64,000 nt of DNA from Mycolicibacterium parafortuitum (lineage in GTDB: Bacteria; Actinomycetota; Actinomycetes; Mycobacteriales; Mycobacteriaceae). Location: contig NZ_AP022598.1 in NCBI RefSeq assembly GCF_010725485.1, forward strand, positions 3,472,001 to 3,536,000, given 5' to 3'. Made by a program: the position numbers and the translations under genes. Positions 30,234 through 49,702 of the stretch are shown here, piece after piece; within the stretch, counting starts at the first letter, position 1, and each line of letters opens with the position of its first letter. The notes under the pieces were generated by a model. The model ran no database searches. It worked only from the letters and a program-made list of their open reading frames with translations, and was not told the origin of the DNA.

Positions 30234-30313
30234 CCACGGGAACCTGCGTGCACCCTAACCGGCCGTTATTTGCGCGCACCGTGAGCAAAACCGCGCTCTG
30301 GGACACTGGGCAT

Positions 30314-31498
30314 GTGTCACCGCAACCGGATGTCGCGCAGCGACCTCAGCTGCCCCCGATGACGGCCCGGCCGGGCCGTGCGTTCGGCATCTACATCCAC
30401 GTGCCGTTCTGCGCGGTGCGCTGCGGATACTGCGACTTCAACACCTACACCCCGGCCGAACTCGGCGGAGCCAACCCCGATGGCTGGCTCGCGGCGGTGC
30501 GCACCGAGCTGCGGCTGGCCGCTGCCCACCTCGGCGCCGCCCCGCCGGTGCAGACCGTGTTCGTCGGCGGCGGCACGCCGTCGCTGCTGGGTGCCGACCG
30601 CCTCGCCGAGGTGCTCACCGCGATCCGCGACAACTTCACCCTGGCGCCCGGTGCGGAGATCACCACCGAATCGAACCCGGAGTCCACCTCGGCACCCTTC
30701 TTCGCGGCGCTGCGCAGCGCCGGCTACACCCGTATCTCGCTGGGCATGCAGTCGACCGCGCCGCACGTGCTTGCCGCACTCGACCGGGTGCATTCCCCGG
30801 GGCGGGCGCTGCAGGCCGCCCGGGAGGCCCGCGCGGAAGGCTTCGAACACGTCAACCTGGATCTGATCTACGGCACGCCGGGGGAGTCCGACGACGACCT
30901 GCTGCGCTCGGCCGACGCCGCGATCGACGCCGATGTCGACCACATCTCCGGCTACGCGTTGATCGTCGAGGACGGCACGGCACTGGCCCGGCGCGTGCGG
31001 CGCGGCGACATTCCCGCGCCCGACGACGACGTGCACGCGCGCCGCTACGAACTGCTCGACCGGCGCCTGGCCGCCGCCGGGTTCGACTGGTACGAGGTGT
31101 CGAACTGGAGCCGGCCCGGCGGGGAGTGCCTGCACAACATCGGCTACTGGAACGGTGGTCAGTGGTGGGGGGCGGGGCCGGGTGCGCACGGCTTCGCGGG
31201 CTCCACCCGATGGTGGAATGTCAAGCACCCCAACGCTTATGCCGCGGCGCTGGAATCCGGTGCGCTCCCGGTCGCCGACTTCGAGGAGATCGACACCGAC
31301 ACCGCCCACGTCGAGGACGTGATGCTCGCGGTGCGGTTGCGCACCGGGCTGGCCGCCTCGGCGCTGACCGAACAGGAGCATCAGCGCGCGCGGGCCGCGG
31401 TCGCCGACGGCCTGCTGCACGACGCGGCGGGCCGGTTCGTGCTCACCGACCGTGGCCGGCTGCTCGCCGACGCGGTGGTGCGGGATCTGCTGAGCTGA
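30314..31498 (+). CDS. hemW: HemW heme chaperone (radical SAM, annotated HemN in M. tuberculosis)
   Basis: 394 residues from GTG 30314. The N-terminal CAVRCGYC motif binds the radical-SAM [4Fe-4S] cluster; VFVGGGTPSLL and ESNPES follow, and NIGYWNGGQWWGAGPGAH lies in the C-terminal half. The lack of an N-terminal HemN extension and the position match Rv2388c, now regarded as HemW, which handles heme rather than oxidising coproporphyrinogen. GACACT 6 nt before the GTG could be a leaderless -10. Another in-frame start is ATG 30359. Divergent from the sirA operon. Confidence 0.88.
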   Translation: MSPQPDVAQRPQLPPMTARPGRAFGIYIHVPFCAVRCGYCDFNTYTPAELGGANPDGWLAAVRTELRLAAAHLGAAPPVQTVFVGGGTPSLLGADRLAEVLTAIRDNFTLAPGAEITTESNPESTSAPFFAALRSAGYTRISLGMQSTAPHVLAALDRVHSPGRALQAAREARAEGFEHVNLDLIYGTPGESDDDLLRSADAAIDADVDHISGYALIVEDGTALARRVRRGDIPAPDDDVHARRYELLDRRLAAAGFDWYEVSNWSRPGGECLHNIGYWNGGQWWGAGPGAHGFAGSTRWWNVKHPNAYAAALESGALPVADFEEIDTDTAHVEDVMLAVRLRTGLAASALTEQEHQRARAAVADGLLHDAAGRFVLTDRGRLLADAVVRDLLS

Positions 31499-32415: not shown

Positions 32416-32422
32416 CGTGCCC

Positions 32423-32864: not shown

Positions 32865-32883
32865 TTAGGGAAGGCTATCCACA
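32865..32883 (+). promoter_or_regulatory. IdeR iron box upstream of the 6-MSAS-type PKS
   Basis: TTAGGGAAGGCTATCCACA matches the IdeR consensus TTAGGTTAGGCTAACCTAA at 14 of 19 positions by my count, including both GG/CC cores. It ends 22 nt before the PKS start, so iron-loaded IdeR would block transcription, as for mbt genes. Confidence 0.7.
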
Positions 32884-32905: not shown

Positions 32906-35900
32906 GTGGCGCTGACCGTCACCCCGGCGGCGGAGCCGATCGCTGTCGTCGGCATCGGCTGCCGGCTCGCGGGCGACATCAGCACCCCCGACGAGTTCTT
33001 CTCGTTCCTGGTCGCGGGCGGTAGCGCGGTTTCCGAGGTCCCGGCCGACCGGTGGGAGCCCTACCTGCGGCGCGACCCCCGCAATGCCGCGGTGCTGAGC
33101 GAGACGACCCGGTGGGGCACCTTCCTCGACGATCTGGCGGGCTTCGACGCCGAGTTCTTCGGGGTGTCCCCGCGTGAAGCCGAACTGATGGATCCCCAGC
33201 AACGGCTCGCGCTGGAGGTGTCGTGGGAGGCGCTGGAGCACGCCGGCATCGCACCGCGTTCGCTGGCGGGCAGCGACACCGCGGTGCTGATGGGCGTCAA
33301 CTCCGACGACTACGGCAAATTGATCATGGAAGACCTGCCCGGTATCGAAGCCTGGACCGGTATCGGCACGTCGCTGTGCGGTGTCGCCAACCGGGTGTCG
33401 CACCTGCTGGATCTGCGCGGCCCGAGCGTCGCGCTCGACGCGGCATGCGCCGCCTCGCTGGTTGCCGTGCACCAGGCGTGCCAGCTGCTGCGGGCCGGTG
33501 AGACGTCGCTGGCGCTGGCGGGTGGGGTCAGCGCGCTGATCGGCCCGGGCCTGACTCGGGTGCTCGACGTCGCCGGCGCGACCGCGCCCGACGGGCGGTG
33601 CAAGACCTTCGACGACGCCGCCGACGGTTATGGCCGCGGTGAGGGCGCGGGCGTCGTGGTGCTCAAGCGGCTCACCGACGCGGTCCGCGACGGTGACCGG
33701 GTGCTCGCGCTGATCCGCGGCGGCGCCGTCGCCCAGGACGGCAGGACCGTCGGCATCATGTCGCCCAACGGCGACGCTCAGGCCGACCTGTTCCGGCTGG
33801 CCTGCCGCGCCGCGGGCGTCACCCCGGACAGCGTCGACTACCTCGAAGCGCACGGAACCGGCACTCCGACAGGCGATCCCGTCGAGCTCGGTGCGCTGTC
33901 GGCGGTGTACGGCCGCAGTGGTGATCCGTGCGCGGTGGGCTCGGTCAAGCCGAACGTCGGTCATCTGGAGGGTGGTGCCGGGGTCGTCGGGCTGATCAAG
34001 ACGGTGCTCGCGCTGCATCGCGAGATGCTGCCTCCGACAGCTGGGGTACGCACGCTGACCACCGCCGTGGACTGGGCGGCCTGCGGGCTGCGGGTTCCGA
34101 CCGAACCGGAACCGTGGCCGCGCGGCTCCACGCCTCGGCGGGCGGCGGTGTGCAGTTACGGTTACGGCGGCACCATCGCCCACGTGCTGGTCGAAGAGGC
34201 GCCGGTGCCGGCTGTTCCCGAGAACGCTACGGCAGCAACGTCGTTCATTCCGGTATCGGCACGCTCCGAGGCCCGGCTCGCCGCGCACGCCCAGGCACTC
34301 GCCGATCACCTGCGCGCAGACCCCGTCGCCGTCGAGGATGTCGCCGCGACGATGTGGATGCGACGGGGCCACGAGCAGATGCGGGGTGCGGTGGTCACCG
34401 ACGGGCTGGCCGGTGTGCGGGCCCGCGACGCCGCGGTGGATGCGCTCACCGCGCTGGCCGAACGTCGCCGTGATCCACGCGTCGTCACCGGCACGGTGCT
34501 TCCCGCCGCCGAACACGGTGCGGTGTGGGTGTTCTCGGGTCACGGCTCGCACTGGGCCGGGATGGGCCGGGAGCTGTTGATGACCGAACCGGCGTTCGCG
34601 GCGACCATCGACGAGGTCGACGTCGTGTTCGCCCGCGAGCTCGGTTTCTCCGCGCGGCAGGCCCTGACGTCCGAACAACTCGGCGGCACCGATCAGGTGC
34701 AGGCGCTGACGTTCGCGATGCAGGTCGGTCTGGCCGCGGTGCTGACGGAGCGCGGGGTGACACCCGCCGCGGTGATCGGGCATTCGGTCGGCGAGGTCGC
34801 CGCGTGCGTCGTCGCCGGGGTTCTCGACCTCGCGCACGGCGCATCGGTCGCGTGTTACCGCGCCCGCGGATTCCGGTCGGTGATGGGCCACGGCGCGATG
34901 GCGTTGGTGCGGTTGCCGTTCGACGAGGCGCGCCGCCGTCTCGCCGGGCGCGACGACGTCGTCGCGGCGATCAGTGCGTCGACGGAGTCGACGGTGGTGT
35001 CGGGCACGGTCGCCGCGGTCGACGAGATCGTCGCCGCATGGACCGCGGACGGGATGACCGTGCGACGGGTCAACACCGACGTCGCGTTCCACAGCCCGGC
35101 GATGGACGGACTGACCGCAGACCTGGCCAGGCTGGTCGCTCAACTGCCGGCGCCGGGTGCGGCACGGGTACCGCTGTACACCACGGCGTTGGAGGATCCG
35201 CGGTCGACGGCGCCGCGGGGCCCCGACTACTGGGTGGCGAATCTGCGCGACCGCGTGCGCTTCGCCGAGGCGGTGCGGGCCGCCGCCGACGACGGGCACC
35301 GGCTGTTCCTGGAGGTCTCCGCGCATCCGGTGGTGGCGCACTCGATCGTCGAGACGCTGCTCGGAGTGGGCATCACCGAGCACGCGGTGGTGCCGGTGCT
35401 GCGGCGGGATCAGCCGGAGCGCCGCTCGGTCGGTGCCGCGGTGGCCGCGCTGTACTGCCACGGTGCGCCTGTCGCACATGGGTTTTCGCCGACCGCACGC
35501 TGGGCGACCGAGTTGCCTGGGACGCAGTGGCAGCACCGCCGGTTCTGGCGTACGCCGACACCGCCGCCGGGTACGCGCGCGCTGCACGACCCCGCGGCGA
35601 ACACGCTGCTCGGCGGCGCCGTCGACGTCACCGGTGAGGTGCCCGCGCGGGTCTGGCAGACCCGGCTGGACATGGACAACCGCCCGTATCCGGGCGACCA
35701 TCCGGTCCAGGGGACCGAGATCGTCCCCGCCGCAGTGCTTCTCAACACGTTCCTGACTGCCGCCGGCGCAGCTCTGGCGGATGTGCGGTTGCGTACGCCG
35801 GTGCCGCCGGGCCGAGCCCGCGATATCCAGGTCGTGCGGCAGGAGCGCTCGCTGCGGATCTCGTCGCAGCTGGCCGACACCGACTCCGCCGAGAACGGCT

Positions 35901-38008
35901 GGCTCACCCACAGCAGTGCCGTCATCGCCGCGGACGAGGACTTCGCCGGCGAACTGGACGCGCAGGTTTTCCCCCGTTGTCCCGAACAACTGCCCGCCGA
36001 TCATGTCGTCGACACGCTGGCAGGGGTCGGGGTCGCCGCGATGGGTTTCGGGTGGCGGGTGCTGGACATCCGGCGCGGCAGCGGCGAACTGCTGCTGAGG
36101 GTTTCGGCAGAGGCGGACGGCTCGGTGCCGCAGACGTGGGCGGGTCTGCTCGATGCGGCGACCTCGGCGGCGTCGACGATCTTCGACGGTGCGCCGCGGC
36201 TGAGGATGCCCGCACGGATCGATCGTGTGCACGTCTGGGGTGATCCGCCGGCGCTGGCCCTGCTGCATGTGCGGCACCGCGGTGGGACGTCGACCGATGT
36301 GTCGATCGCCGACGAGTCCGGCGTGGTGCGGGCGGCGATCACGGGGATGGCCTTCGAGGAGTTGGAGAACCCCGAAGGCGCCGACCTCGCGCGGATGCTG
36401 CACCAGGTGTCCTGGCGGACAACCGCGTTCGCTGCGGACGCCCGCCCGGCCGAGGTTGCCGTCGTCGGTGATGCGGTGCCGGTGCTCGGTGATCTCGCGG
36501 CGGCTGGAGTACCGAGTTCGGTGTACTCGGGGGTGGACGAGATTCCGGATTCGCTGGGCTCCGACGCCGTCGTGCTGCTGGTGCCGCCCTCGGACGTCGA
36601 GCCGCAGGCATGCGCCGAGCTGGTGTTGCAGGCCGTGAAGACGTTGCACGGCAACAGATCCGAGGCGCGGTTGTGGGTGTTGACCCGGGGCGTCCACGAG
36701 GGTGCGGGCCTGGCACACGCACCGCTGTGGGGAATGGCGCGCGTCGCGGCATCTGAGCATCCACAACTGTGGGGCGGCGTGCTCGATCTCGACGACGGTC
36801 CGCTGCCCGTCGGGGTGCTGGCGTCGCTGCACGGGCACGGTGTGGTTGTGGTGCGCGGCGGGGAGGCCATGACGGCGCGCCTCGCACCGGCGCAGGCTGC
36901 GTCGGGCGCGGCGGTGTCGTGCACGCCCGGCGGTACGTATGTGGTCACCGGCGGTACCGGGGCGCTCGGGCTGCGGATCGCGCAGCGGTTGGCCGATCTG
37001 GGTGCCCGCCGGCTGGTCCTGTTGTCGCGCACGGGGATACCGCACCGCCAGGCTTGGTCCGACGCGGTCGACCACGAGGCCGTCGCCGTGGTGTCGGCGT
37101 TGGAGGACCGGGGCGTGACCGTCTCGGTCCCGGCGATCGACATCGGCGCCCCCGACGCCGGCGAGCGTCTCAGGGCCGTGCTGGCGGACATGCCCGCGGT
37201 GCGCGGGGTGGTCCACGCCGCGGGTGTGGAAGCCGGGGCGCTGCTGCTCGGTACGTCACCTGAGGACCTGCGTGCGGCGATGCGGCCGAAGGTCACGGGC
37301 ACCATGACGCTGCACGAACTGTTCCCGCCGGGACAACTGGACTGGATGGTGTTGTTCTCCTCGTGCGGATATCTGGCCGGCTTCCCGGGGCAGGGTGCGT
37401 ATGCCTGCGCGAACGCGTTTCTCGATGCGGCCGCCCGGCACCGACGCAGCCTGGGGGATCGGACGGTCAGCATCGCGTGGACGGCGTGGCGCGGGCTGGG
37501 GATGGGGTCGACGTCCGGTTTCGTGGCCGCCCAGCTCGAAGCTCTCGGTATGGGGACGGTCGGCGCGGACGATGCGATGCGGGCATTGGACGTCGCGTTG
37601 CGTGGTGACGAGGCCAATGTCATTGTGTTGCCGGTGCTTCCGGAGGCTGCGGCGGTGCCGATGCTGTCCGAGGTGGCGCCGACCGCCGAACCGGAGGCCC
37701 CAGGCGGCGGACCGGTGGTTCCTGGTGACGGAGACCTCGACGAGTGGGTGTCCGCGCAGGTGATCGAAGCCGTCGCCGCTGAACTGGGCCTGGCCACATC
37801 GGATGTCGACCCGCGGATGCCGCTGGTCGAAACCGGGGTCGACTCGATCATGACGGTCGCGCTGCGGCGCACCCTGGAGAAGCGGACCGGGCTGACGTTG
37901 CCGCCGACCTTGTTGTGGGAGCACCCTACTGCCGCCGCGGTGTCGGAGCGCATCATCGAGTTGCTCGTGCCGCGGAGTGCGGATACGAGCGAGACCGCGG
38001 AGGTCTGA
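32906..38008 (+). CDS. Iterative type I PKS of 6-methylsalicylic acid synthase type
   Basis: 1700 residues, the length of 6-MSAS. The domain order is KS (about 13-435, active Cys181 in DAACAASL), AT (about 540-850, Ser627 in GHSVGEVA, malonyl-type VAFHS), TH/DH (about 890-1150, His932 in [10 protein letters not shown]), KR (about 1345-1550, GGTGALG at 1349-1355, Ser1486, Tyr1499, Asn1503) and ACP (Ser1647 in GVDSIMT). It has no ER and no thioesterase. The HxxxGTEIVP motif and [15 protein letters not shown] are close to fungal 6-MSAS and bacterial ChlB1-like enzymes. An intact KR favours 6-methylsalicylate over orsellinate. The start GTG 32906 has no clear Shine-Dalgarno. With an iron box upstream and mbtA/mbtB downstream, it likely supplies the aryl cap of mycobactin. 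Confidence 0.88.
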
Positions 38009-38012
38009 CGCG

Positions 38013-38030
38013 CGCGGCCGTCAGGCCGCG
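38013..38030. terminator. GC-rich hairpin between convergent PKS and DUF222 gene
   Basis: CGCGGCC, loop GTCA, GGCCGCG: a 7-bp perfect stem starting 4 nt after the PKS stop and overlapping the stop of the DUF222 gene on the other strand. It can serve both directions; there is no U tract. Confidence 0.5.
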
Positions 38031-39474
38031 TGGTCTTCGGGTGGTGCGGGTCCGCCGGGTTCGCCGGGGTTGTCGGGTTCAGCCGCGGGACTGTCGTTTT
38101 CGGGTTCCTCGGGTGGGCGCAGGAGTCGTTCGGGGCGGTGGTAGGTGTTGACCCGGGCCTGTCCGGTGTCGAGGTGTTCGGGTGGGAGCCATTCGACCTC
38201 GCCGCGGGTGTTGATGCGGGTGGTCCAGGCGGTGGGGTCGTCGGGGTGGACGCTGCGGTTATCGGGCCCGCAGGCCAGGCCGAGTTCGTTGATGTTGGTG
38301 TTTCCGCCGCGCGCCCAGTCGGTGACGACGTGGTGGACTTGGCTGCCGTAGGCGCCGACGGTGCAGCACGGTTTGGTGCAGCCGCCGTCGCGGGCGATCA
38401 ACATGATCCGCTGCTCAGGGGTGGCGATGCGTTTGGTGCGGAACAAATCCAACGCTGCCCCGGTGGCGTTGTCGAACACGGCGAGGTAGTGGTTGGCATG
38501 CCCGGCCATCCGGATGACGTCTTTGATGGGCATCCTGGTGCCGCCACCGGTGACCCCGATCCCGGCGCGGGATTCGAGGTCTTGCAGCGTGGTGCGGATG
38601 ATGATCGACACCGGTAGCCCGTTGAGTGTGCCCAACTCACCACTCATCAGGGCGATGCGTCCGACCGCGATCAGCGCATCATGCTGGCGCTGAGCCAGGC
38701 TGCGATCGTCAGAGTCGATCTGGGTTTGTGACGGGGTGCCCGAGGTGCAGGGTTCCGGATCAGCGGGGTTGCACATGCCGGGGGCGGCGTATTTGGCGAA
38801 GATCACCTCCAGCACCGCCCAGGCTTCCGGCGTCAACGTCGCGGTCACGTCGACCATCCCATCGGCACGCTGCTTGTGCTTGGTGACCCCGCGCTGGCGG
38901 GCGCGTTCGGTGTCATCGGGTTCGGGGCCGTCCTGATCCAACAGAAACAGGATCAGCTCGGCGGCGTCCTTCAGCTCTTTCGGTCCGACCCCGACCGCGG
39001 TGCGCACCAGGTCGACCTCGAACTGCTCGCGCGTGGCCGTATCCACCCAGGACGGGAGTTTGGCCACCGATTTGCGGATGACGTCGACGTGTTCGGGGTT
39101 GATCAGCCCGCCTTCTTGGGCGATCGCCGTCGCCGGCAGCAGCGGCGGCAGCGCCGGCCCGGTCACCGACGGGCGCGGCGCCAACAGGCAAGCCTCGGTC
39201 AGGCGCCGATTCGCTTCGGTGACCGAGATGCGCCACCGGATCCGCAGCACGTCTTTCCAGGATTTGGCGCGCCCATCTCCCGGGCGGTGGTCTCGGTCTG
39301 CAACCGCGCCAACAGCCGATGCCCCAGCCCGGGCAGCCGGCAACCCAGACTCTCCAACTCGTCCATCGTCTCGAGGAGTTCGTCGCGGGTCAGCAGCTCC
39401 AGATCGCAGGCCGCCACGGTGTCGAACGCGGCCCGCAGCGCGGCGACCGCGTCCTGCAACTCCGTCCTCGACAT
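38021..39474 (-). pseudogene. DUF222/HNH endonuclease (13E12-type), frameshifted
   Basis: The N-terminal part (ATG 39474, MSRTELQDAVAALRAAFDTV to TETTAREMG) and the C-terminal part (AKSWKDVLRIRWRIS to the end) lie in different frames and meet near 39267-39272, a GCGCGC run. Removing one GC dinucleotide restores the continuous family sequence, so this is a 2-nt slip. The HNH domain is intact: CTKPCCTVGAYGSQVHHV, WARGGNTNINELGLACGPDN. These multicopy mycobacterial genes behave like dispersed repeats of unknown role. A sequencing error in the run is the main alternative to a true pseudogene. It separates the PKS from mbtA. Confidence 0.8.
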
Positions 39475-39514
39475 GACTCGAACATACATTCGACCCCCGA
39501 CAAATCCGGGCCCT

Positions 39515-39581
39515 GCCGCCGAGTCTGAAGAAGATGCCGAGATCCGGCCCGAAACTCGCGAACAAGTTCAGACTCGGCGGC
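39515..39581. repeat. 15-bp perfect inverted repeat between DUF222 gene and mbtA
   Basis: GCCGCCGAGTCTGAA (39515-39529) and TTCAGACTCGGCGGC (39567-39581) are exact inverse complements 37 nt apart. The right arm touches the last base of mbtA. It may be a terminator for mbtA or a remnant of the insertion that placed the DUF222 gene here. Confidence 0.7.
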
Positions 39582-41251
39582 TATTGGGCAGAGCTCAGCC
39601 GCGCGACCAACGCCTTCTTGTCGACCTTGCCCACCGCGGTCGTCGGCAGCGACGGAAGCGGCGCAAGCACGTCGGGCCGCGCATGCGTGGACGCGCCACG
39701 TTCATCCAGAAACGCGTTCAGCTCGGCCAGCGAGATCGGCTTACCCCGGAAAACCACTGCGGCACAGATCTTCTCACCCAGGTACTCATCCGGTAGCGCG
39801 ACCGCGGCGGCCGCATAGATCGCCGGGTGGGTGTGCAGGTGATCTTCGAGGTCGGTCGCCGACACCGTCTCGCCGCCGCGGTGGATCACGTCCTTGATCC
39901 GGCCGACCACCTCCACGTATCCCGCGCGCGGACCGTCGGCGAAGATCCGCACCCGGTCCCCGCTGCGGTAGAAGCCATCGGGGGAGAACGACCGCGCGTT
40001 CGCCTCGTCGTCGCGGTAATAGCCGTTGAGCGTGTACGGGCCCCGCACCAACAGCTCACCCTCGTCGCCCAACAGCACCTCGTCACCGTTCTCGTCCACG
40101 ACGCGCATCTCGTCGTGCGGCGACATCGGCCGGCCCTGGGTATGCACCACCACGTCCTCGGGGTCGCCGGGCCGGGTGAAGTTCAGCATGCCCTCGGCCA
40201 TCCCGAAGATCTGCGACATCCCCGGCGTCAACCGTTCCAGGATGAACCGTGCGTCCTCGGGACTCATCCGCGATCCGCCGACCTGGACGAACCGCAACGA
40301 CGTGGGCAACACCGGCTCCCATTCGCACGCCTGCGCCCACAGCTTCGCCAGCGCGTTGACCAGGCCGGTCACGGTGATCTGATGCTTGTCGATCAGCGCG
40401 AACGCGTTCTCCGGGCTCGGGTCGGCAGTGAACACGGTGGTCGCGCCGACGGTCATCGAGCCGAGCATGCCGGGGCAGCCGAGTGGGAAGTTGTGCCCGG
40501 CGGGTAGCGCGACGAGGTACGCGTCGCGGTCGGTCATCTCGCAGGCCTGCGCACACGCCACCGCGGTGTAGACGTAGTCGTCGTGGGTGCGGGCGATCAG
40601 CTTCGGAAGACCGGTGGTGCCGCCGGACACCAGTAGCAATGCGGGCAGTGACGTCTCCACCGGCTCCGGCTCGGCCAGGGTGCCGGAGAACCCGACCAGC
40701 GAGGACCAGGGGACATACGGGCCCGCCTCCCCGTCGACGATCACATGGCGCAGCGCCGGATGCCCGGCGACCAGCTGCGCGGCCATCTCCCGATAGTCGA
40801 ACCCCGCCGCCTTGTCCGGCACGATCAGCGCGACGGCGTCGCTGATCTGGGCGAAGTGCCCCAGCTCGGCGGTGCGATGCCCGGGTAGGCACATCACCGG
40901 CACGGCGCCGGCGCGTAGCAGGCCGAAGAACGCGATCGCGAACTGGCACGAATTCGGCAGCTGCAACAGCACCCGGTCTCCCGCCGCAATGCCGAGGTCG
41001 GCAAATCCGGCGGCAACCCGGTCGGCGAGCGTGTCGAGCTCGGCGAATGTGTATGAGCTCTGCGCGTCGACGATCGCCGGCTTGTCGGGCCTCGCCGCGG
41101 CGGCCTCGGACAAGATCGAGTCCAGCCGCCGCCCGGTCCAGTAGCCCGCGCGGCGGTACTCCTCGGCGCGGTCCGCCGGAAACGGAACGAAACCGACCGC
41201 CAGGTCACGGACCAAGTCCTTGTCGCGGTCAGGCAGGAATGCCGTGCTCAT
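39581..41251 (-). CDS. mbtA: Aryl-AMP ligase MbtA (mycobactin starter activation)
   Basis: 556 residues. A stand-alone adenylation domain: the A3 loop is SGGTTGLPKLIARTH near residue 200, LPAGHNFPLGCPG holds the His-Asn aromatic-acid motif of DhbE-type enzymes, SGDRVRIF is A7 and PTTAVGKVDKKAL is A10. It activates the (methyl)salicylate starter as the acyl-AMP and loads it onto the ArCP of MbtB. Start is ATG 41251. It is divergent from mbtB, with two iron boxes between the starts. If the PKS upstream supplies 6-methylsalicylate, the pocket must accept the methyl group; this cannot be judged from sequence by eye. Confidence 0.95.
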   Translation of the reverse strand: MSTAFLPDRDKDLVRDLAVGFVPFPADRAEEYRRAGYWTGRRLDSILSEAAAARPDKPAIVDAQSSYTFAELDTLADRVAAGFADLGIAAGDRVLLQLPNSCQFAIAFFGLLRAGAVPVMCLPGHRTAELGHFAQISDAVALIVPDKAAGFDYREMAAQLVAGHPALRHVIVDGEAGPYVPWSSLVGFSGTLAEPEPVETSLPALLLVSGGTTGLPKLIARTHDDYVYTAVACAQACEMTDRDAYLVALPAGHNFPLGCPGMLGSMTVGATTVFTADPSPENAFALIDKHQITVTGLVNALAKLWAQACEWEPVLPTSLRFVQVGGSRMSPEDARFILERLTPGMSQIFGMAEGMLNFTRPGDPEDVVVHTQGRPMSPHDEMRVVDENGDEVLLGDEGELLVRGPYTLNGYYRDDEANARSFSPDGFYRSGDRVRIFADGPRAGYVEVVGRIKDVIHRGGETVSATDLEDHLHTHPAIYAAAAVALPDEYLGEKICAAVVFRGKPISLAELNAFLDERGASTHARPDVLAPLPSLPTTAVGKVDKKALVARLSSAQ

Positions 41252-41295: not shown

Positions 41296-41314
41296 ATAGG
41301 GTAGCCTGCACGAA
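41296..41314. promoter_or_regulatory. IdeR iron box 1 in the mbtA-mbtB intergenic region
   Basis: ATAGGGTAGCCTGCACGAA matches the IdeR consensus at 12 of 19 positions by my count. Its centre is 20 bp from that of box 2, as in the tandem arrangement known for mbtA/mbtB in M. tuberculosis. Confidence 0.65.
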
Positions 41315-41315
41315 G

Positions 41316-41334
41316 TTAGGGCAGCCTGACTTAA
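41316..41334. promoter_or_regulatory. IdeR iron box 2 in the mbtA-mbtB intergenic region
   Basis: TTAGGGCAGCCTGACTTAA matches the consensus at 14 of 19 positions by my count. It lies 29 nt before the chosen mbtB start and should repress mbtB, and with box 1 mbtA, when iron is sufficient. Confidence 0.78.
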
Positions 41335-41363
41335 ATTTCGTGGTGGTCGAGGAGGTTGGTGGT

Positions 41364-44300
41364 TTGACGTCGACGACTACGCAGTCCGTTCGCGACGAAG
41401 TCGCCGAGCTGCTCGGCGTGGACCCCAGCGAGCTCGACCCGCAGGCGGATCTGATCGCCTCCGGGCTCGACTCCATCCGCATGATGTCGCTGTCCGGACG
41501 CTGGCGCAGGCAGGGTATCGACGTCGGGTTCGCCGCGCTGGCCGCAAACCCGACCGTGGCCGCGTGGGCCGACCTGGTCGCCGAACGCACCGCCCCGCCC
41601 GCCGAGCATCCGGCGCCGGCCGACGCCGCCGCCGACGGCAGCACCGTCCCGGACACCTTCCCGCTCGCGCCGATCCAGCACGCGATGTGGATCGGGCGCA
41701 ACGACGACCAGCAGCTCGGCGGCGTCGCCGGGCACCTCTACATCGAGCTCGACGGCACAGGCGTGGACCCCGAACGCCTGCAGGACGCCGCGACCAAACT
41801 CGCCGCCCGCCACCCGATGCTCCGCGTCGAGATCCTGCCGGACGGAACCCAGCGCATCACCGACCGCGGACTGCCGGTCACCGTGTACGACCTGCGCGAC
41901 CACGACGAGGCCGCCGCCCGCGATCGGCTCGACGAGATCCGCCAGGCCAAATCGCATCAGATGCTGCACGGCGAGGTCCTGGAGATCTCGCTGTCGCTGC
42001 TCGCCGGTGGCCGGACCCGACTGCACGTCGACATGGACATGCAGGCCTCCGACGCGGTCAGCTACCGCAACTTCATGTCCGACCTCGCCGAGTTCTACGG
42101 CGGCGCAACCCTTCCCGAGCTCGGATACACCTACCGCGAGTACCGTGCCGCTCTGGAGCGGACGGTGCCGGAGTCCGGGACCGATGACGACCGGCAGTGG
42201 TGGGCCGAACGGATCCCCGAATTGCCCGAAGGTCCGGCGCTGCCGCTGGTGCCCCGTTCGGAGCAGGCCGACCCGCGCCGCGGCACCCGGCGGGTGCACA
42301 TCTTCGACGTCGCGACCCGCGACGCGCTCTTCGAAGCGGCCCACCGGCGGGGCGTCACCCCGGCGATGGCGGTCGGCGCCTCCTACGCCGGCACCCTCGC
42401 GCGGTGGTCGACGAGTCGCCGATTCCTGTTGAACCTGCCCATGTTCGGGCGCGAACAGTTCCACCCCGACGTCGACAAACTGGTCGGCGACTTCACCTCG
42501 TCGCTGATGCTCGACGTCGACCTGACCGCGGCCGACACCCCGATCGCGCGCGCCCGGGTGCTGCAGGAGACGTTGCACACCACCGCGAACCATTCGAGCT
42601 ACTCGGGCCTGTCCGTGCTGCGCGACCTGACGCGCCACCACGGCACGCCGGTGTTGGCGCCGATCGTCTACACCAGCGCGCTCGGACTCGGAGATCTGTT
42701 CGCCGGCAGGGTGACCGAGTTCTTCGGCAAGCCGGTGTGGACGATCTCCCAGGGGCCCCAGGTGCTGCTCGACGCCCAGGCCACCCCGATCGCCGACGGG
42801 CTGATGATCAACTGGGACACCCGCGAGGATGCGTTCCGTCCCGGCGTCGCAGACGCGATGTTCGCTCACCACATCGCCGAGCTGCAACGGCTCGCCACCG
42901 ACGACTCCGCCTGGGATGCGCTCGATCTGCCCGCCGTGACAACGGAGCAGCAGGCCGCCCGAGATGCCGTCAACAGCGTGGTGGGCGCGGCGAGCGGCGA
43001 CGCGCTGCACGACGGATTCTTCCGGCGCGCCGCAGAGCAGCCCGACGCACCCGCGGTGTTCAGTAGCGCGGGCACCCTGACCTATGCCGAACTGCGGGAG
43101 CAGGTGCTGGCCGTCGCCGCGGCGCTCGACGTCGCCGGCGTCCGGCGCTCCGACACCGTTGCGGTACTAGGGCCCAAGAACTTCGAGCAGGTCATCGCAC
43201 TGCTCGCGATCTCGGCGATCGGCGCGGTCTATGTCCCGGTCGGGGTGGACCATCCCGCCGAGCGCGCCTCGCGGATGCTGGCCAACGCCGGGGCGAAGAT
43301 GGCGCTGGTGTGCGGGGATGAGCCGCCGACGACGATGGCCGCGCTGACCGTTGCGGAGGCGATCCGCGTCGGCCGCCGCGCCCGAGATTTCGAACCCCCG
43401 AAGGTCGACTCGTCCGAGCTTGCCTACATCCTGTTCACGTCCGGTTCCACCGGCGAGCCCAAGGGTGTCGAGATCACCCACGACGCCGCGATGAACACCG
43501 TCGAATTCATCAACGGACACTTCGGGATCGGGCCTGCGGATCGCTGTCTGGCGCTGTCGACGCTGGAATGCGATCTGTCGGTGCTCGACGTCTTCGGCAT
43601 GCTGCGCGCCGGCGCCTCGATCGTCGTCGTCGACGAGGCGCACCGCCGCGATCCGGACACCTGGGTGCGGCTGATCGCGGAGCACGCCGTCACCGTCCTG
43701 CATTTCATGCCGGGCTGGCTGGAGATGCTCTCGGCCGTCGACGGCGACCTGTCCTCGGTGCGCGTGGTGCCGACCGGAGGGGACTGGGTGCGGCCCGCGA
43801 TGGTGCGTGCGCTGCGTGACCGCGCACCGCAGATGCGGTTCGCCGGACTCGGCGGTGCGACCGAGACGGCCACCCACAACACGATCTGTGAGGTCGTCGG
43901 CGACATCCCCGACGACTGGACCTCGATACCGCTGGGCGTGCCGCTGCCGAACAACATGTGCCGGGTGGTCGGCCCCGACGGACGGGACTGCCCCGACTGG
44001 GTCCCCGGTGAACTGTGGGTCGGGGGACGCGGTGTGGCGCGCGGATATTGCGCGCGCCCGGATCTGACCGCCGAACGGTTCGTCGAGTACGACGGCATCA
44101 GGTGGTACCGGACCGGCGATCTGGTGCGGTACCGGCCCGGCGCGGTCATCGAGTTCGTCGGCCGTGCCGACCACCGTATCAAGATCAGTGGATACCGGGT
44201 CGAACTCGGTGAGGTCGAGGCCGCCCTGCGTGGCCTGCCCGGGGTGGATTCCGCTGTCGCCGCGGTGGTCGCGGCCGACGGCGGCCGAGACGTGCTGGCG

Positions 44301-44828
44301 GCGTTGGTCACCGCGGAGACCGCCGATCTGGACCCCCGCACACTTGCCGAAGGTCTCGCAAAAGTCGTTCCGCCGCACATGGTTCCGCAGACCATCGTGG
44401 TGGCCGACCAGGTGCCCTACACCGTCGGCGGCAAGATCGACCGGACCGCGGTCGCCGCTGCGCTCAAAGACGCGGGCGCGACGACCCCGGTGGCGTACCG
44501 CGCCCCGGCGACGGCGCTGGAGACCGCGCTGTGCTCGATCGTCGGTTCGGTGCTGGACAGCGAGCGGATCGGCGTCGACGACGACTTCTTCGCCAGCGGC
44601 GGCGATTCCGTGCTGGCGACCCAGGTCGTCGCCAGGATCCGCACCTGGCTGGACGCACCGTTCGTCGCTGTCGCCGACATCTTCGCGGCGCGCACCGTTT
44701 CCGCGTTGGCGGCCAGGTTGGCCGACCGGGACAGCCGCCTCGAAGAGGTCGCCGAGGTGTACCTCGACGTTGCGCAGATGGACGCCACCGAGGTGGCGGC
44801 CGCGCGGATGGAAGCCGCGGCATCGTGA
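41364..44828 (+). CDS. mbtB: Phenyloxazoline synthase MbtB (NRPS: ArCP-Cy-A-PCP)
   Basis: 1154 residues from TTG 41364, chosen because AGGAGG sits 8 nt before it; an in-frame GTG at 41340 would add 8 residues. Domains are ArCP (Ser37 in SGLDSIRM), cyclisation domain (about 75-510, DxxxxDxxS with D225, D230, S233), A (about 530-990, LFTSGSTGEPKG) and PCP (Ser1082 in GGDSVLA). It condenses the aryl starter with Ser or Thr and cyclises to the oxazoline. The C-terminal thioesterase found in M. tuberculosis MbtB (about 1414 residues) is absent; a separate thioesterase gene follows with a GTGA overlap. Confidence 0.95.
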   Translation: MTSTTTQSVRDEVAELLGVDPSELDPQADLIASGLDSIRMMSLSGRWRRQGIDVGFAALAANPTVAAWADLVAERTAPPAEHPAPADAAADGSTVPDTFPLAPIQHAMWIGRNDDQQLGGVAGHLYIELDGTGVDPERLQDAATKLAARHPMLRVEILPDGTQRITDRGLPVTVYDLRDHDEAAARDRLDEIRQAKSHQMLHGEVLEISLSLLAGGRTRLHVDMDMQASDAVSYRNFMSDLAEFYGGATLPELGYTYREYRAALERTVPESGTDDDRQWWAERIPELPEGPALPLVPRSEQADPRRGTRRVHIFDVATRDALFEAAHRRGVTPAMAVGASYAGTLARWSTSRRFLLNLPMFGREQFHPDVDKLVGDFTSSLMLDVDLTAADTPIARARVLQETLHTTANHSSYSGLSVLRDLTRHHGTPVLAPIVYTSALGLGDLFAGRVTEFFGKPVWTISQGPQVLLDAQATPIADGLMINWDTREDAFRPGVADAMFAHHIAELQRLATDDSAWDALDLPAVTTEQQAARDAVNSVVGAASGDALHDGFFRRAAEQPDAPAVFSSAGTLTYAELREQVLAVAAALDVAGVRRSDTVAVLGPKNFEQVIALLAISAIGAVYVPVGVDHPAERASRMLANAGAKMALVCGDEPPTTMAALTVAEAIRVGRRARDFEPPKVDSSELAYILFTSGSTGEPKGVEITHDAAMNTVEFINGHFGIGPADRCLALSTLECDLSVLDVFGMLRAGASIVVVDEAHRRDPDTWVRLIAEHAVTVLHFMPGWLEMLSAVDGDLSSVRVVPTGGDWVRPAMVRALRDRAPQMRFAGLGGATETATHNTICEVVGDIPDDWTSIPLGVPLPNNMCRVVGPDGRDCPDWVPGELWVGGRGVARGYCARPDLTAERFVEYDGIRWYRTGDLVRYRPGAVIEFVGRADHRIKISGYRVELGEVEAALRGLPGVDSAVAAVVAADGGRDVLAALVTAETADLDPRTLAEGLAKVVPPHMVPQTIVVADQVPYTVGGKIDRTAVAAALKDAGATTPVAYRAPATALETALCSIVGSVLDSERIGVDDDFFASGGDSVLATQVVARIRTWLDAPFVAVADIFAARTVSALAARLADRDSRLEEVAEVYLDVAQMDATEVAAARMEAAAS

Positions 44829-45568
44829 GCGCTCCACTGACCGCGAAGCCGTGGATCAAACGGTTTCCCGCCGTCGGGCAGGCGAGTTCGGGTCCCATCC
44901 TGGTCTTCCCGCACGCCGGCGGTGCCGCCGCCACCTACCGCGGCCTGGCCACGGCGTTGTCCGCCCGTGGTCTCGACGCGTACGTGATGCAGTACCCGCA
45001 GCGCGCCGAACGTCTCACCCACCCGGCGTCGGCCACGGTCGAGGAACTGGCGCAGGACCTGTTCGACGCCGCGGACTGGTCGGCGCTCGGCGAGCTGCAA
45101 CTGTTCGGCCACTGCCTGGGCGCGGTGGTGGCGTTCGAGTTCGCCAGGATCGCCGAAGCCCGCGGCGTCGAGGTGCGTCGGCTGTGGGTGTCGGCCAGTG
45201 AGGCGCCGTCCGCGGTGGCCGCGTCGCCCCGGCTGCCGACCGAGGACCGCGAAATCCTCGCGCACATGCTCGATCTCGGCGGCACCGATGCCCGGCTGCT
45301 GGCCGACGAGGATTTCGTCGAGCTGCTGTTGCTGGCCGTGCGCGCCGACTACGAGGCCTTCAACCGCTACTCGGCCGCCCCGGACGTGAAGATCCGCGCC
45401 GACATCCACACCCTCGGCGCCCACAGCGATCACCGCATCGCGCCGGACATGCTGAACCGGTGGCAAGCGCATACCGGCGGCGCGTTCGCGCGGGACCTGT
45501 TCGACGGCGGCCACTTCTATATCACCGAACTCGCCGGGCCCGTGGCAGAGCTGATTCATGGCCGTTAG
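44825..45568 (+). CDS. mbtT: Stand-alone thioesterase of the mycobactin cluster
   Basis: 247 residues, alpha/beta hydrolase of the type II thioesterase family: ILVFPHAGGAAATYRGLA near residue 25 and GGHFYITE near 225, with the catalytic His. The nucleophile elbow reads GHCLGA, so Cys97 replaces the usual Ser. It starts inside the mbtB stop and overlaps mbtC by 11 bp, so it is a coupled part of the assembly line. The likely role is editing or release of blocked thioesters, equivalent to the TE fused to MbtB in M. tuberculosis. Confidence 0.85.
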   Translation: MSAPLTAKPWIKRFPAVGQASSGPILVFPHAGGAAATYRGLATALSARGLDAYVMQYPQRAERLTHPASATVEELAQDLFDAADWSALGELQLFGHCLGAVVAFEFARIAEARGVEVRRLWVSASEAPSAVAASPRLPTEDREILAHMLDLGGTDARLLADEDFVELLLLAVRADYEAFNRYSAAPDVKIRADIHTLGAHSDHRIAPDMLNRWQAHTGGAFARDLFDGGHFYITELAGPVAELIHGR

Positions 45569-46868
45569 CGCTGACGACCCGGTCGTCATCGTGGGCATGG
45601 CCCTGGAGGCGCCCGGGGGAATCGACACCGCAGACGACTACTGGGCGATGCTCGCCGAGGAACGCGAGGTGCTCGGCCCGTTCCCGACCGACCGGGGCTG
45701 GCGGGTGCGGGAGTTGCTCGACGGCTCACGCCGCGAAGGCTTCAAACGCATCCACGACCTGGGTGGATTTCTCACCGGCGCAGCCGCATTCGACCCCGAG
45801 TTCTTCGGGATCTCACCGCGGGAAGCCGTCGCGATCGACCCGCAGCAGCGGGTCGCGCTGCGGGTGGGCTGGCGGGCACTGGAGAACGCGGGCATCAACC
45901 CCGACACCTTGGCCGGAGAAGACGTCGGATGCTACGTCGGGGCCTCGTACCTCGGGTACGGCGGTGATCTCGCCGAATACTCGGCCTACAGCGGGCATCT
46001 GCTCACCGGCACCACGCTCGGCGCGATCTCCGGACGCATCGCCTACGTGCTGGGGCTCGGCGGACCCGCGCTGACGATCGACGCGTCCTGCACCGGTGGG
46101 CTGGCCGCGCTGCACGTCGCGGTCACCGCGGTGCGCAGCGGCGACTGCGACATCGCGCTGACCGGCGGGGTCTGCGTGCTCGGCTCGCCCGGCTACTTCG
46201 TCGAATTCTCCAAGCAGCACGCACTGTCCGACGACGGACACTGCCGCCCGTACAGCGCGCAGGCCAGCGGCACGGTGTGGGCCGAGGGGGCGGCGATGTT
46301 CGTGCTGGCCCGCCGCTCGGTGGCCGACCGCAACGGATACCCGGTACTGGCCGAGGTGCTGGCCAGCGGCGTGAACTCCGACGGCCGCACCAAGGGCATG
46401 ACCGCGCCGAGCGGCGACGCCCAGGCCCGGTTGTTCCGGCGCGTGCTTGACGCATCCGGCGCGCAACCCGAAGAGATCGGCATGATCGAGGGCCACGGCA
46501 CCGGCACCCGGCTCGGCGATCGCACCGAACTGCATTCGCTGGCAGCGACCTACGGCGCGACCCGGCCCGGACACGGCGGTGTGCTCGGCTCCGTCAAATC
46601 GAACATCGGACACGCGCAGTCCGCCGCCGGGCCGCTCGGGCTGGCCAAGATCCTGGTCGCCGCCGAACACCGCGCGATCCCGAAAAGCCTGCATACCGAC
46701 GAACCGAGCCGCGAGATCGACTGGGACGCCCAAGGACTGCGGCTGGCCACCAAGCTGACCGATTGGCCCGAGATCGAGGGACGGCGGCTGGCCGCGGTGT
46801 CGGCCTTCGGGATGAGCGGCGCCAATGCGCACGCGATCGTCGCCATCCCAGCCGGAGGGGCGTCGTGA
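45558..46868 (+). CDS. mbtC: Mycobactin polyketide synthase MbtC (ketosynthase)
   Basis: 436 residues, a single KS domain. Active Cys178 lies in DASCTGGLAAL (most modular KS have ACSSSL). The two His are in EGHGTGTRLGD and KSNIGHAQSAAG. With MbtD it extends the growing chain by a malonate unit to give the beta-hydroxybutyrate-type linker of mycobactin. The ATG 45558 lies 11 bp inside the thioesterase gene. Confidence 0.93.
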   Translation: MAVSADDPVVIVGMALEAPGGIDTADDYWAMLAEEREVLGPFPTDRGWRVRELLDGSRREGFKRIHDLGGFLTGAAAFDPEFFGISPREAVAIDPQQRVALRVGWRALENAGINPDTLAGEDVGCYVGASYLGYGGDLAEYSAYSGHLLTGTTLGAISGRIAYVLGLGGPALTIDASCTGGLAALHVAVTAVRSGDCDIALTGGVCVLGSPGYFVEFSKQHALSDDGHCRPYSAQASGTVWAEGAAMFVLARRSVADRNGYPVLAEVLASGVNSDGRTKGMTAPSGDAQARLFRRVLDASGAQPEEIGMIEGHGTGTRLGDRTELHSLAATYGATRPGHGGVLGSVKSNIGHAQSAAGPLGLAKILVAAEHRAIPKSLHTDEPSREIDWDAQGLRLATKLTDWPEIEGRRLAAVSAFGMSGANAHAIVAIPAGGAS

Positions 46869-49702
46869 TGCTGCCCGATGCCCGGATCCCGGTGCTGCTC
46901 AACGCTCATGCCGACGCCCTGATCGCCGAGGACGCGCGCCGAATCCTCGGCTACCTCGACCGGAAGCCGACGCTGGAGGCCGTCGCGGCCACCCTGCTGC
47001 GGCTGCGCAGGCGCCAGCGCCACCGCGCGGTCGTGCGCGCGGCCGATCTGCGCGAACTCGGTGAGGGACTGGCCGCACTTGCCCGCGGCGCCGATCATCC
47101 ATTGATCACACACGCCACGCTCGCCGAGAAGGGCCGCCGCGCATTCGTGTTCCCGGGCCAGGGCAATCAATGGCCGTCGATGGGCGCCGAGGCCTACCGC
47201 ACGCTGAATGCGTACCGGACCGCGGCCGACGAGTGCGCCGCGGTCTTCGAAGCCGCGGGGCAGCGGTCCCCGCTGGACTACCTGACCGCCGCACCGGGAG
47301 CCGAGGGCTGGTCGCAGATCGACGCCCAGGCAGCGCAGTTCACCCACGCCGTTGCGCTGTCGGCGGTCTGGCGGTCCTGCGGGATCGAACCGGATCTGAC
47401 CGTCGGGCACAGCCTCGGCGAAGTCGCCGCCGCCTGTGTGGCGGGGATGCTCACGTTGGCCGATGCCGCGGCGGTGGTGATCGCGCGCGCCGCCGTGCTG
47501 GAGAACCTGTCTCAGGGTTACGGCATGGTCGTCCTCGGCGTCGCGCCCGCCGACGCGCAACTGTTGATCGACGAAACCGGTGGCTGGTTGGAACTCTCGG
47601 TGGTCAACGCCGCATCCTCGGTGGCGGTGTCGGGGGAGAGCGCGGCGGTCGAGAAGCTGAAGGACACCGCCACCGAGCGCGGCATCTTCGCCCGCACGGT
47701 CACCATGGCCTTCCCCGCGCACACCAGCCTGCTCGACGGGCTGCGCACCGATCTGCTCGGCCGACTGCCGAACGCGTCCTTCCGCGACGGCGGCATCCCG
47801 TTCATCGGTTCGGCGACCGGAACCGCGGTACCGCCCGACTCCGACTTCGCCGACTACTGGTTCGCCAACCTGCGCAACACCGTTCGCTTCGACCACGCGG
47901 CGGCAGCGGCCGTCGGCGCGGGTGCCGACATCTTCATCGAGATGTCGGCGCATCCGGCGCTACTGTTCGCACTCGGGCAGAGCGCAGGTGACGCGGTCAC
48001 CGTCGGGTCCGGCCGCCGCGATGCGCCGATCGCCGACGCGCTGGCGGCCGGCATCGCGACCGTCGCGGCCGCCGACCCGGCCTTTGCCTGGGATGACACC
48101 GTCGACACGAGCACCCCGCCGCTGCGCGGGTTCCCGCACACGCCGATGCGCGCCACCCACCTTTGGGCGCTGCCCCAGCCGCTTCCGCCGGCCCCGGCGC
48201 TGACCCTGGCCACCGAGGCGTGGGAGCCGCGCGACACCGCGCCGGCCACCCTGGCGCTGCGCCGCACCGCCGTGCTCGAACTGCCCGGGCCCCGCAGCGG
48301 TCTGGGAGATCTTCTGCGCGACGCCGTCGACCGGCATCTCGGCGTTCAGGCAGCCCCCGTCGAAGAAGCCGACCTCGTCCTCGCCGTCGCCCCGGCCCTG
48401 CACGACCCCGACGCCACCCGGTCCGCCCATGCCCTTGCGGACCTGATCGGTGCCGGACTGCTCGGCTACGGCGACACCGTCGGATCCGACTGCCGCGACC
48501 TCTGGCTGGTCACCGTCGCCGGTGAACAGGTCCACCACGACGAGACACCGCTGCCCGGGCAGGCCGCACTGGCCGCCGTGCACCGCAGCCTCGGGTTCGA
48601 ACACCCCGACGTGAACTTCCGGCATCTGGACCTCCCGTCGTCGACCCCGGACGCCGCGACCGTGCTGGATGCGGTGTGCACCGACGGAGACGAGCTCGCG
48701 GTGCGTGAAACCGACGACGGCCCAACCGTGTTCGCACGGGGCGAGCGCGAACCCGTGACGGTCCCGGAGCTGTGGCTCACCGACCCCGGGGTGCTCGACG
48801 ACGTCGTCATCACCGGCGGCAACGGCACAGTCGGGCGGCACTACGCGAAGGTTCTGGCCCGCCACGGCGCCCGCCGGATCACGGTGCTGAGCCGCAGCCA
48901 GGGCTGCGACATCACCGATCCAGGGCAGGTGGCCGCCGCCGCGGCCGAACTCGGCGGCGAGGGAGCCACACTGGTGATCCACGCCGCGGCGACCGCGCGG
49001 TTCGCCGACCGCAATGAGCTCACCGCACAGGACTTCACCGACGCCTGCGCTGCCAAGATCTCCGGGATCACCCACATCGTCGAACACTGGCCGCTGCGCC
49101 CCGGCGCCCGGATCGTGTTGTGCAGCTCGGTGTCCGGGTTGTGGGGCGGACGCGGCCACGCCGCCTACGCGGCGGCCAACCGGATGCTCGACGCGCTGGC
49201 CGCGCAACTGCGTGCCGACGGATTCCTCTGCAGTGCAGCACGGTTCGGGCTATTCGGCACCGGGATCGTCGACGAGGCGGCGGTGGACCGCATCGGCCGG
49301 GCCGGTCTCGTGCCGATGGACGCCGACGACGCGATCGAGGCCAGCCTGCGCGAGTACGGCGGCGACGCGGTGATCTACAGCGCCGACCGGGCACGGCTTC
49401 AGGTGTTCCGCGATGTGCCCGCCGCCGAGTCGGCGGGCGGCGCTGCCGGTGCCGAAGACCGCACCGCGCTGGTGGTTTCCGAACTCGCCTCGGTACTCGG
49501 TGTGCAACCCGACACCATCGACCTGACAGCGGCACTGCTCGACATGGGTGTCGACTCTCTGCTGGCCCTGGACCTGCGCAAGAGACTGCGCCGAGGTACC
49601 GGAAGATCGGTACCCCTGGCCGCCATGCTCGGCGGTATCACCGGCACCGAACTGGTCGCCGCCCTCGATGAACACCCACGGAAGAATGAGATTCCCGCGT
49701 GA
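46868..49702 (+). CDS. mbtD: Mycobactin polyketide synthase MbtD (AT-KR-ACP)
   Basis: 944 residues. AT (about 95-400, Ser182 in [10 protein letters not shown]), a linker, KR (about 645-830, GGNGTVG at 650-656, [20 protein letters not shown]) and ACP (Ser897 in [11 protein letters not shown]). It complements the free KS MbtC: AT loads the extender, KR reduces the beta-keto group. The ATG 46868 shares one base with the mbtC stop (TGATG) and has GGAGG 8 nt upstream; GTG 46865 is an alternative. Confidence 0.93.

What the first reader, a model, noticed from the sequence alone, without database searches (positions are those of the whole stretch)
32906..38008. A 6-methylsalicylate synthase-type PKS appears to replace MbtI as source of the mycobactin cap
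Seen: a 1700-residue KS-AT-TH-KR-ACP protein with intact catalytic residues and 6-MSAS-like motifs, an iron box 22 nt upstream, next to mbtA, and no salicylate synthase gene in the window. Known: mycobactins of some fast growers (for example M. phlei mycobactin P) contain 6-methylsalicylate, and polyketide origin of that acid was shown by labelling, while salicylate-type mycobactins use MbtI. Inference: this is the gene behind 6-methylsalicyl-mycobactins and MbtA here accepts 6-methylsalicylate.
Basis: partly seen in the sequence, partly recalled or inferred. Interest (0 to 1): 0.88.

Follow-up and report, generated by a model that had tools for sequence, protein, structure and literature searches.

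The report
Polyketide enzyme supplies mycobactin's aromatic cap
This mycobacterium has no recognisable gene for the usual salicylate-making enzyme MbtI; instead a polyketide synthase gene beside its mycobactin genes likely makes the aromatic cap of that iron carrier, predicted to be 6-methylsalicylate, which would give a gene to a cap known from chemistry.

Summary
Window 32906-38008 encodes a 1700-residue KS-AT-TH/DH-KR-ACP polyketide synthase with all twelve checked catalytic residues intact, an iron box 22 nt upstream, and the mycobactin cluster beside it. The complete 6.04-Mb genome has no salicylate synthase over the family cut-off; the three weaker matches are TrpE, PabB and an isochorismate synthase. 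PKS and MbtI are near-alternatives in the genus: of 118 genomes with MbtA, 43 have PKS only, 68 MbtI only, 6 both, 1 neither (that one holds a split PKS). PKS genomes are scattered on an rpoB tree, yet their MbtA form one clade, so PKS and mbtA appear to travel together. MbtA residue 299 is Asn in 50 of 50 PKS genomes and Pro in 67 of 67 MbtI genomes. Convergent PKS genes have an iron box (47 of 49 loci); those following mbtA have none (0 of 9). Species of the M. fortuitum complex carry both genes side by side. The product is inferred: the mycobacterial PKSs are a separate lineage, 49% identical to a reported Streptomyces 6-MSA synthase. No chemistry was run, and a PchB-type salicylate route was not searched for.

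The parts
32906..38008 (+). type I polyketide synthase of 6-MSAS type, KS-AT-TH/DH-KR-ACP, 1700 aa; predicted source of the mycobactin aryl cap
32933..34048 (+). ketosynthase domain (residues 10-381), C181/H316/H353
   Evidence: PF00109, PF02801
34523..35419 (+). acyltransferase domain (residues 540-838), S627/H729, AFH motif read as malonyl-type (motif recalled)
   Evidence: PF00698
35606..36379 (+). thiohydrolase/dehydratase domain (residues about 901-1158), H932/D1083
   Evidence: PF21089, PF14765
36932..37492 (+). ketoreductase domain (residues 1343-1529), S1486/Y1499/N1503
   Evidence: PF08659
37757..37954 (+). acyl carrier domain (residues 1618-1683), S1647
   Evidence: PF00550
32865..32883 (+). 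iron (IdeR-type) box before the PKS, 14 of 19 consensus positions
39581..41251 (-). mbtA, aryl-acid adenylating enzyme of the PKS-associated type (A236, N299, I348, M355)
41296..41334 (.). two iron-box-like sites between mbtA and mbtB (41296, 13/19; 41316, 15/19)
41340..44828 (+). mbtB, aryl carrier/condensation/adenylation protein that would receive the aryl cap
44531..45568 (+). thioesterase ORF of the mycobactin cluster (Pfam match from residue 122)
45558..46868 (+). mbtC, ketosynthase
46763..59330 (+). mbtD (46763-49702), mbtE (49699-54978), mbtF (54951-59330), named by order and size; domains not scanned here
   Evidence: inference
59240..60634 (+). mbtG, lysine/ornithine N-monooxygenase family
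60612..60827 (+). mbtH, 71 aa, recognised by eye
   Evidence: inference
38021..39565 (-). DUF222 protein lying between the PKS and mbtA; not part of the mechanism
30248..31498 (+). hemW; left border gene, followed by mbtI in the MbtI-type locus G042 and in the dual loci read

Best explanation
The gene at 32906-38008 encodes a polyketide synthase with the domain layout of 6-methylsalicylate synthases, which likely takes the place of the salicylate synthase MbtI as the source of the mycobactin aryl cap. Predicted steps: under low iron IdeR would leave the boxes before the PKS and between mbtA and mbtB; the PKS would condense one acetyl and three malonyl units, reduce once, cyclise and release 6-methylsalicylate through its TH domain; MbtA would adenylate it and load it on the aryl carrier domain of MbtB; the rest of the pathway would run as in ordinary mycobactin, giving a cap 14 Da heavier. 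Shown here: domain order and residues, the box, the lack of an MbtI over the cut-off, the genus-wide alternation of PKS and MbtI, closeness to mbtA, and one MbtA clade for the PKS genomes. Inferred: the product, the release step, MbtA's substrate, IdeR control and the final siderophore. The two-gene unit PKS plus mbtA appears to have moved between species and displaced mbtI, with the M. fortuitum complex holding both.
For: Architecture and catalytic residues. No MbtI over the cut-off in a complete genome. Of 118 genomes with MbtA among 148 searched, 43 PKS only, 68 MbtI only, 6 both, 1 neither (Fisher p 1.8e-24, relatedness ignored); the 'neither' genome has a PKS in two pieces. In 396 genomes: 105 PKS only, 190 MbtI only, 20 both, 81 neither. 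PKS and mbtA on one contig in 46 of 49 genomes, within 222 bp in 37. PKS genomes rejected as one rpoB clade (p-AU 1.9e-31) while their MbtA are one clade (SH-aLRT 100). PKS distances follow MbtA (r 0.949) more than MbtB (0.919) or HemW (0.817) over 50 of 65 loci. MbtA N299 in 50 of 50 against P in 67 of 67. Own iron box in 47 of 49 convergent loci, 0 of 9 tandem loci, while the mbtA-mbtB box is kept in 58 of 58. M. aurum has the PKS and no MbtI over the cut-off; proteins named M. phlei and M. thermoresistibile are in the family. Precedent: cahuitamycin C (PMC4757757, passages read).
Against: The mycobacterial PKSs form their own lineage, about 49% identical to the reported Streptomyces gandocaensis 6-MSA synthase and outside the clade that holds it, so the product is not fixed by phylogeny. 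PDB 5WM2, which I recall to be CahJ, the ligase thought to use both salicylate and 6-methylsalicylate (PMC4757757), carries the salicylate-type residues Pro, Val and Leu at the MbtA marker positions, so those residues are not needed for 6-MSA use. The MbtA clade has one origin, so marker and PKS are linked by joint inheritance, not by repeated substitution. In 7 independent rpoB pairs MbtI went opposite to the PKS in only 4-5 and did not differ in 2-3 (median p 0.125), because of the dual genomes. Six of 118 genomes have both genes. An isochorismate synthase gene is present, and a PchB-type lyase was not searched for.
Confidence: 0.86

Rival explanations
1. The PKS makes the cap, but the acid is not 6-methylsalicylate: another small aromatic such as a methylnaphthoate or an orsellinate-like acid.
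For: Naphthoate synthases share the domain order (recalled), one relative is auto-named 5-methyl-1-naphthoate synthase (P0026), and the mycobacterial lineage lies outside the clade of the reported 6-MSA synthase.
Against: An intact KR argues against orsellinate. The TH segment of the M. phlei-named protein scores 240 and 239 bits against the two references of the 6-MSAS-holding clade and 106 against the one member tested of the other clade. M. aurum, M. phlei and M. thermoresistibile, recalled as makers of 6-methylsalicyl mycobactins, have this PKS.
Confidence: 0.07
2. The cap is still salicylate, made from isochorismate by a lyase, and the PKS makes something unrelated.
For: An isochorismate synthase gene over its family cut-off is in the genome; a PchB-type lyase was not searched for.
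Against: Such a synthase would be expected for menaquinone in any mycobacterium (inference). It does not explain why PKS and MbtI alternate, why the PKS lies within 222 bp of mbtA in 37 of 49 genomes, or why it has an iron box.
Confidence: 0.04
3. The PKS contributes another part of mycobactin, such as the acyl tail or the 3-hydroxy acid, or makes a separate iron-regulated lipid.
For: It lies in a cluster with iron boxes, and this genome has other PKSs 41-46% identical to it over long stretches.
Against: mbtC and a gene in the mbtD place are present for the hydroxy-acid step, and replacement of mbtI specifically is unexplained.
Confidence: 0.03

Closest known systems
Streptomyces gandocaensis cahuitamycin 6-MSA synthase (P0192) with CahI/CahJ
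   Same: KS-AT-DH-KR-ACP synthase proposed to feed 6-methylsalicylate to a salicylate-AMP ligase of an oxazoline-type NRPS pathway; salicylate comes from an MbtI homologue, CahI (PMC4757757, passages read).
   Different: There the MSAS is unlinked and works beside CahI; here it is near mbtA, has an iron box and stands without MbtI. About 49% identity.
Mycobactin cluster with MbtI (M. tuberculosis / M. smegmatis type; established knowledge)
   Same: mbtA divergent from mbtB and hemW at the border; in the unnamed MbtI-type genome G042 mbtI occupies the place that the PKS has here.
   Different: Cap acid predicted from a polyketide synthase instead of from chorismate; MbtA of a separate clade.
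Fungal 6-MSAS and the Mycobacterium PKSs of unknown function in Schmitt and Lumbsch 2009 (PMC2636887)
   Same: That paper places four Mycobacterium PKSs of unknown function as the clade closest to fungal 6-MSAS (passages read); they are probably this family.
   Different: No function or link to mycobactin is given in the passages read; the accessions (Table S1) could not be opened, so identity with this family is unverified.

Membership tests
6-methylsalicylate synthase (iterative, partially reducing type I PKS) | KS-AT-TH/DH-KR-ACP on one chain of about 1700-1800 aa, no ER, no TE | tested here: met
6-methylsalicylate synthase (iterative, partially reducing type I PKS) | intact catalytic residues in every domain | tested here: met
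   12 positions, window protein and 120 listed best hits, 121 of 121
6-methylsalicylate synthase (iterative, partially reducing type I PKS) | placement inside the clade of known 6-MSA synthases | tested here: inconclusive
   with 6-MSAS-like bacterial PKSs and apart from this genome's other PKSs (100), but as a separate lineage outside the clade with the reported 6-MSA synthase (95, unresolved); fungal and other known references not in the tree
6-methylsalicylate synthase (iterative, partially reducing type I PKS) | works iteratively and makes 6-methylsalicylate | not testable with these tools
   needs enzyme or mass spectrometry
mycobactin pathway | mbtA, mbtB and the following NRPS/PKS genes present | tested here: met
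   mbtD-F by order and size only
mycobactin pathway | salicylate synthase MbtI (TIGR03494 over 325 bits) | tested here: not met
   best 174.5 bits, which is TrpE
IdeR regulon | iron box before the gene, conserved in relatives | tested here: met
   consensus recalled, binding itself not testable
6-methylsalicylate-loading aryl-AMP ligase | accepts 6-methylsalicylate | not testable with these tools
   only sequence markers seen

The most novel reading that the evidence does not exclude
PKS plus mbtA is a two-gene cap-swapping cassette that has repeatedly displaced mbtI across mycobacteria; a single MbtA residue (Asn or Pro at 299) tells from a genome which cap is made, and the M. fortuitum complex, which carries mbtI and the PKS side by side, makes a mixture of salicyl and 6-methylsalicyl mycobactins.
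Probability: 0.6. Interest if true: 0.8.

Novelty: new variant of a known kind. Interest (0 to 1): 0.74.

Why it matters
6-Methylsalicylate in mycobactins of some fast growers is old chemistry (recalled), and no paper found in the ten searches here names its gene. The finding gives a candidate gene, a genome-level predictor of cap type across the genus, and a case of a siderophore changing its iron-binding aryl group by swapping a chorismate enzyme for a polyketide synthase together with its ligase. It also bears on MbtI as a general mycobacterial iron-uptake enzyme: MbtI over the cut-off was missing from 186 of 396 genomes, 105 of which have the PKS.

Tried and rejected

Finding the M. phlei genome by its PKS (P0086) over 400 genomes: no usable answer twice. 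A 320-aa TH segment of P0086 was searched instead; the best identity was 86%, so M. phlei is not recognisable among the 396, and its MbtI status is untested. M. thermoresistibile was not located either.

First MbtA alignment took the longest ORF and put a few rows in a wrong frame; redone by tblastn. A236 looked perfectly separating, but one of 58 named loci has V there; N299, I348 and M355 held in 58 of 58. The PKS tree took outgroup rows by longest ORF and used 4 of 6; it was rebuilt with 7 frame-checked rows, which moved the mycobacterial clade from an unresolved fork to the outermost branch (95).

Papers: the ten searches of the held library gave no paper linking a PKS to the mycobactin cap (mostly listings seen). 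Passages were read in PMC2636887, PMC4757757, PMC2661021, PMC4810606, PMC6262359 and PMC10296737. The 1970 review of mycobactins and the CahJ structure paper are not held. That P0207 (Streptomyces sp. Tue6028) is the polyketomycin 6-MSAS is recalled only. No structure prediction was run: the tool returns no coordinates with which to measure a pocket.

Full report
Observation. Window 32906-38008 (+) is one open frame of 1700 aa. Pfam places ketosynthase 10-381, acyltransferase 540-838, PKS dehydratase-type domain about 901-1158 (the thiohydrolase position of 6-MSA synthases, recalled), ketoreductase 1343-1529 and carrier 1618-1683. Twelve catalytic positions were checked and are the same in 121 of 121 sequences (the window protein and the 120 best hits listed) and in two Streptomyces references. 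An iron box lies at 32865-32883, 22 nt before the GTG. The window has 4 sites matching at least 14 of 19 positions of the recalled consensus against 0.03 expected: this one, one between mbtA and mbtB, and two before the gene at 60840-62243.

Surroundings. The order is hemW, a SnoaL-like protein, the PKS, a DUF222 protein, mbtA (-), then mbtB (+) and the rest of the mycobactin cluster. In G042, an MbtI-type genome, mbtI lies between hemW and mbtA, where the PKS lies here; in G021, G127, G134 and G140 the order is hemW, mbtI, PKS, mbtA, mbtB. So the PKS stands in the mbtI position, and the dual genomes look like the intermediate state (inference).

No salicylate synthase. The genome is one contig of 6,044,196 bases. 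The salicylate synthase model gives 174.5, 95.3 and 72.2 bits at best, against a cut-off of 325. Those three are TrpE (954 bits to its own family), PabB (698) and an isochorismate synthase (261, cut-off 225). A PchB-type isochorismate pyruvate lyase was not searched for.

Distribution. The same 148 genomes of the genus were searched for PKS (E to 1e-300), MbtI (family cut-off), MbtA (E to 1e-130) and MbtB (E to 1e-250). PKS orthologues (65% identity or more) are in 49, this genome included; the other 9 genomes counted hold only 39-42% identical paralogues and were not counted. MbtI is in 74, MbtA in 118, MbtB in 115. Among the 118: PKS only 43, MbtI only 68, both 6, neither 1 (Fisher p 1.8e-24, which ignores relatedness). 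The 'neither' genome G020 has the PKS in two pieces, and G076, counted as MbtI only, has fragments of the PKS and a broken MbtI. With both corrected the table is 44, 67, 7 and 0. In 396 genomes, scored with a 320-aa TH segment (E to 1e-50) and the MbtI model: PKS only 105, MbtI only 190, both 20, neither 81; mycobactin genes were not checked beyond the 148.

Named genomes. Fifty of the 65 loci were searched for MbtI (completeness of these genomes is not told). Ten have it: M. septicum, M. porcinum, M. peregrinum (three), M. setense, M. senegalense, M. houstonense and two unnamed species; the named ones belong to the M. fortuitum complex (recalled). mbtI lies directly before the PKS in the 11 loci where it was read. 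Forty do not have it, among them M. aurum, M. parafortuitum, M. vaccae, M. iranicum and M. neoaurum. Proteins named M. phlei (P0086) and M. thermoresistibile (P0065) are in the PKS family; their genomes' MbtI status is untested. That M. phlei, M. aurum and M. thermoresistibile make 6-methylsalicyl mycobactins is recalled, not read here.

Cassette. In 46 of 49 genomes PKS and mbtA are on one contig, 36 convergent and 10 in tandem with mbtA first; 37 of the 46 are within 222 bp and the other 9, this genome among them, 1.2 to 13.2 kb apart; in 3 they are on different contigs. On an rpoB tree (quick, no bootstrap) of 88 of the 117 genomes with an aligned MbtA, the PKS/MbtI state needs 12 changes, and one clade of PKS genomes is rejected (p-AU 1.9e-31). 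In the MbtA tree of 117, all PKS and dual genomes are one side of a branch with SH-aLRT 100. Over 50 of 65 loci PKS distances follow MbtA (r 0.949), then MbtB (0.919), then HemW (0.817). The simplest reading is that PKS and mbtA are inherited together across species (inference). In G031 and G109 mbtI lies near a hemW gene while the PKS-mbtA-mbtB block lies elsewhere.

MbtA markers. Fifty PKS-type (dual included) and 67 MbtI-type sequences were compared. Position 299 is N in 50 of 50 and P in 67 of 67; 348 is I in 49 of 50 and V in 67 of 67; 355 is M in 49 of 50 and L in 67 of 67. In 58 named loci, which overlap these species, N, I and M hold in 58 of 58. By the alignment to PDB 1MD9 (DhbE, recalled) these are its positions 280, 329 and 336; that 329 corresponds to one of the ten pocket positions of GrsA is recalled. 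In seven independent pairs on starred rpoB branches N299 follows the PKS 7 times of 7 (p 0.016), while MbtI goes the opposite way in 4-5 and does not differ in 2-3 (median p 0.125). Against over-reading: the MbtA clade has one origin, and 5WM2 (CahJ, recalled), thought to use both acids, has P, V and L there.

Iron control. Upstream of the PKS, 55 of 64 named loci score 13 or better against 108 of 2560 random windows from the same loci. Sorted by arrangement over 65 loci: convergent 47 of 49, tandem 0 of 9, mbtA not in reach 7 of 7; the mbtA-mbtB box is present in 58 of 58 loci where it could be read. One of the two convergent misses, L074, is due to a displaced start and scores 14; the other was not followed up. 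So the box is there where the PKS must have its own promoter and missing where it follows mbtA.

Phylogeny. Trees of 74 and 59 PKSs (quick, LG+G4; non-mycobacterial rows drawn from a search with a Pseudonocardia PKS) make the 10 mycobacterial rows one clade (100). Rooted on seven frame-checked PKS stretches of this genome, all 6-MSAS-like rows split off at 100, and the mycobacterial clade is the outermost branch (95), beside two clades, one of which holds the S. gandocaensis cahuitamycin MSAS; in the earlier tree this fork was unresolved. Identity to the S. gandocaensis enzyme is 49%. The TH segment of P0086 is nearer to the 6-MSAS-holding clade (240 and 239 bits) than to the one tested member of the other (106 bits). 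Fungal 6-MSAS, ChlB1 and AviM are not in these trees. Schmitt and Lumbsch 2009 (PMC2636887, passages read) had put four Mycobacterium PKSs of unknown function closest to fungal 6-MSAS; they are probably this family. Automatic names already call several members 6-methylsalicylic acid synthase, others PpsA or 5-methyl-1-naphthoate synthase.

Verdict. The PKS most likely supplies the aryl acid for mycobactin in place of MbtI, and 6-methylsalicylate is the best guess for it. The ten searches of the held open-licence library found no paper making this link; subscription papers were not searchable.

Noticed in passing
window 60840-62243 (-), boxes at 62289 and 62314: A 467-aa exported-looking protein with an acidic tail and no Pfam match has two iron-box-like sites (15 of 19 each) within 90 nt upstream: perhaps an iron-regulated envelope protein.
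   Followed up: no
window 38021-39565 (-): A DUF222 protein gene separates PKS and mbtA here and in M. parafortuitum L016, while 27 of 36 convergent genomes have the two genes 2-136 bp apart; perhaps a later insertion.
   Followed up: partly
window 31595-32800 (+); L026:21712-22500: A SnoaL-like protein of unknown role lies between hemW and the PKS; in M. elephantis a partial homologue (59%) lies between mbtB and the thioesterase.
   Followed up: no
G031, G109; by coordinates also G213, G413: mbtI lies millions of bases from the PKS in the same genome, in G031 and G109 near a hemW gene, as if a whole mycobactin cluster had been replaced and mbtI left behind.
   Followed up: partly
genus search: MbtB of many MbtI genomes is only about 50% identical to the window's, that of others 60-65%: there seem to be two MbtB lineages.
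   Followed up: no
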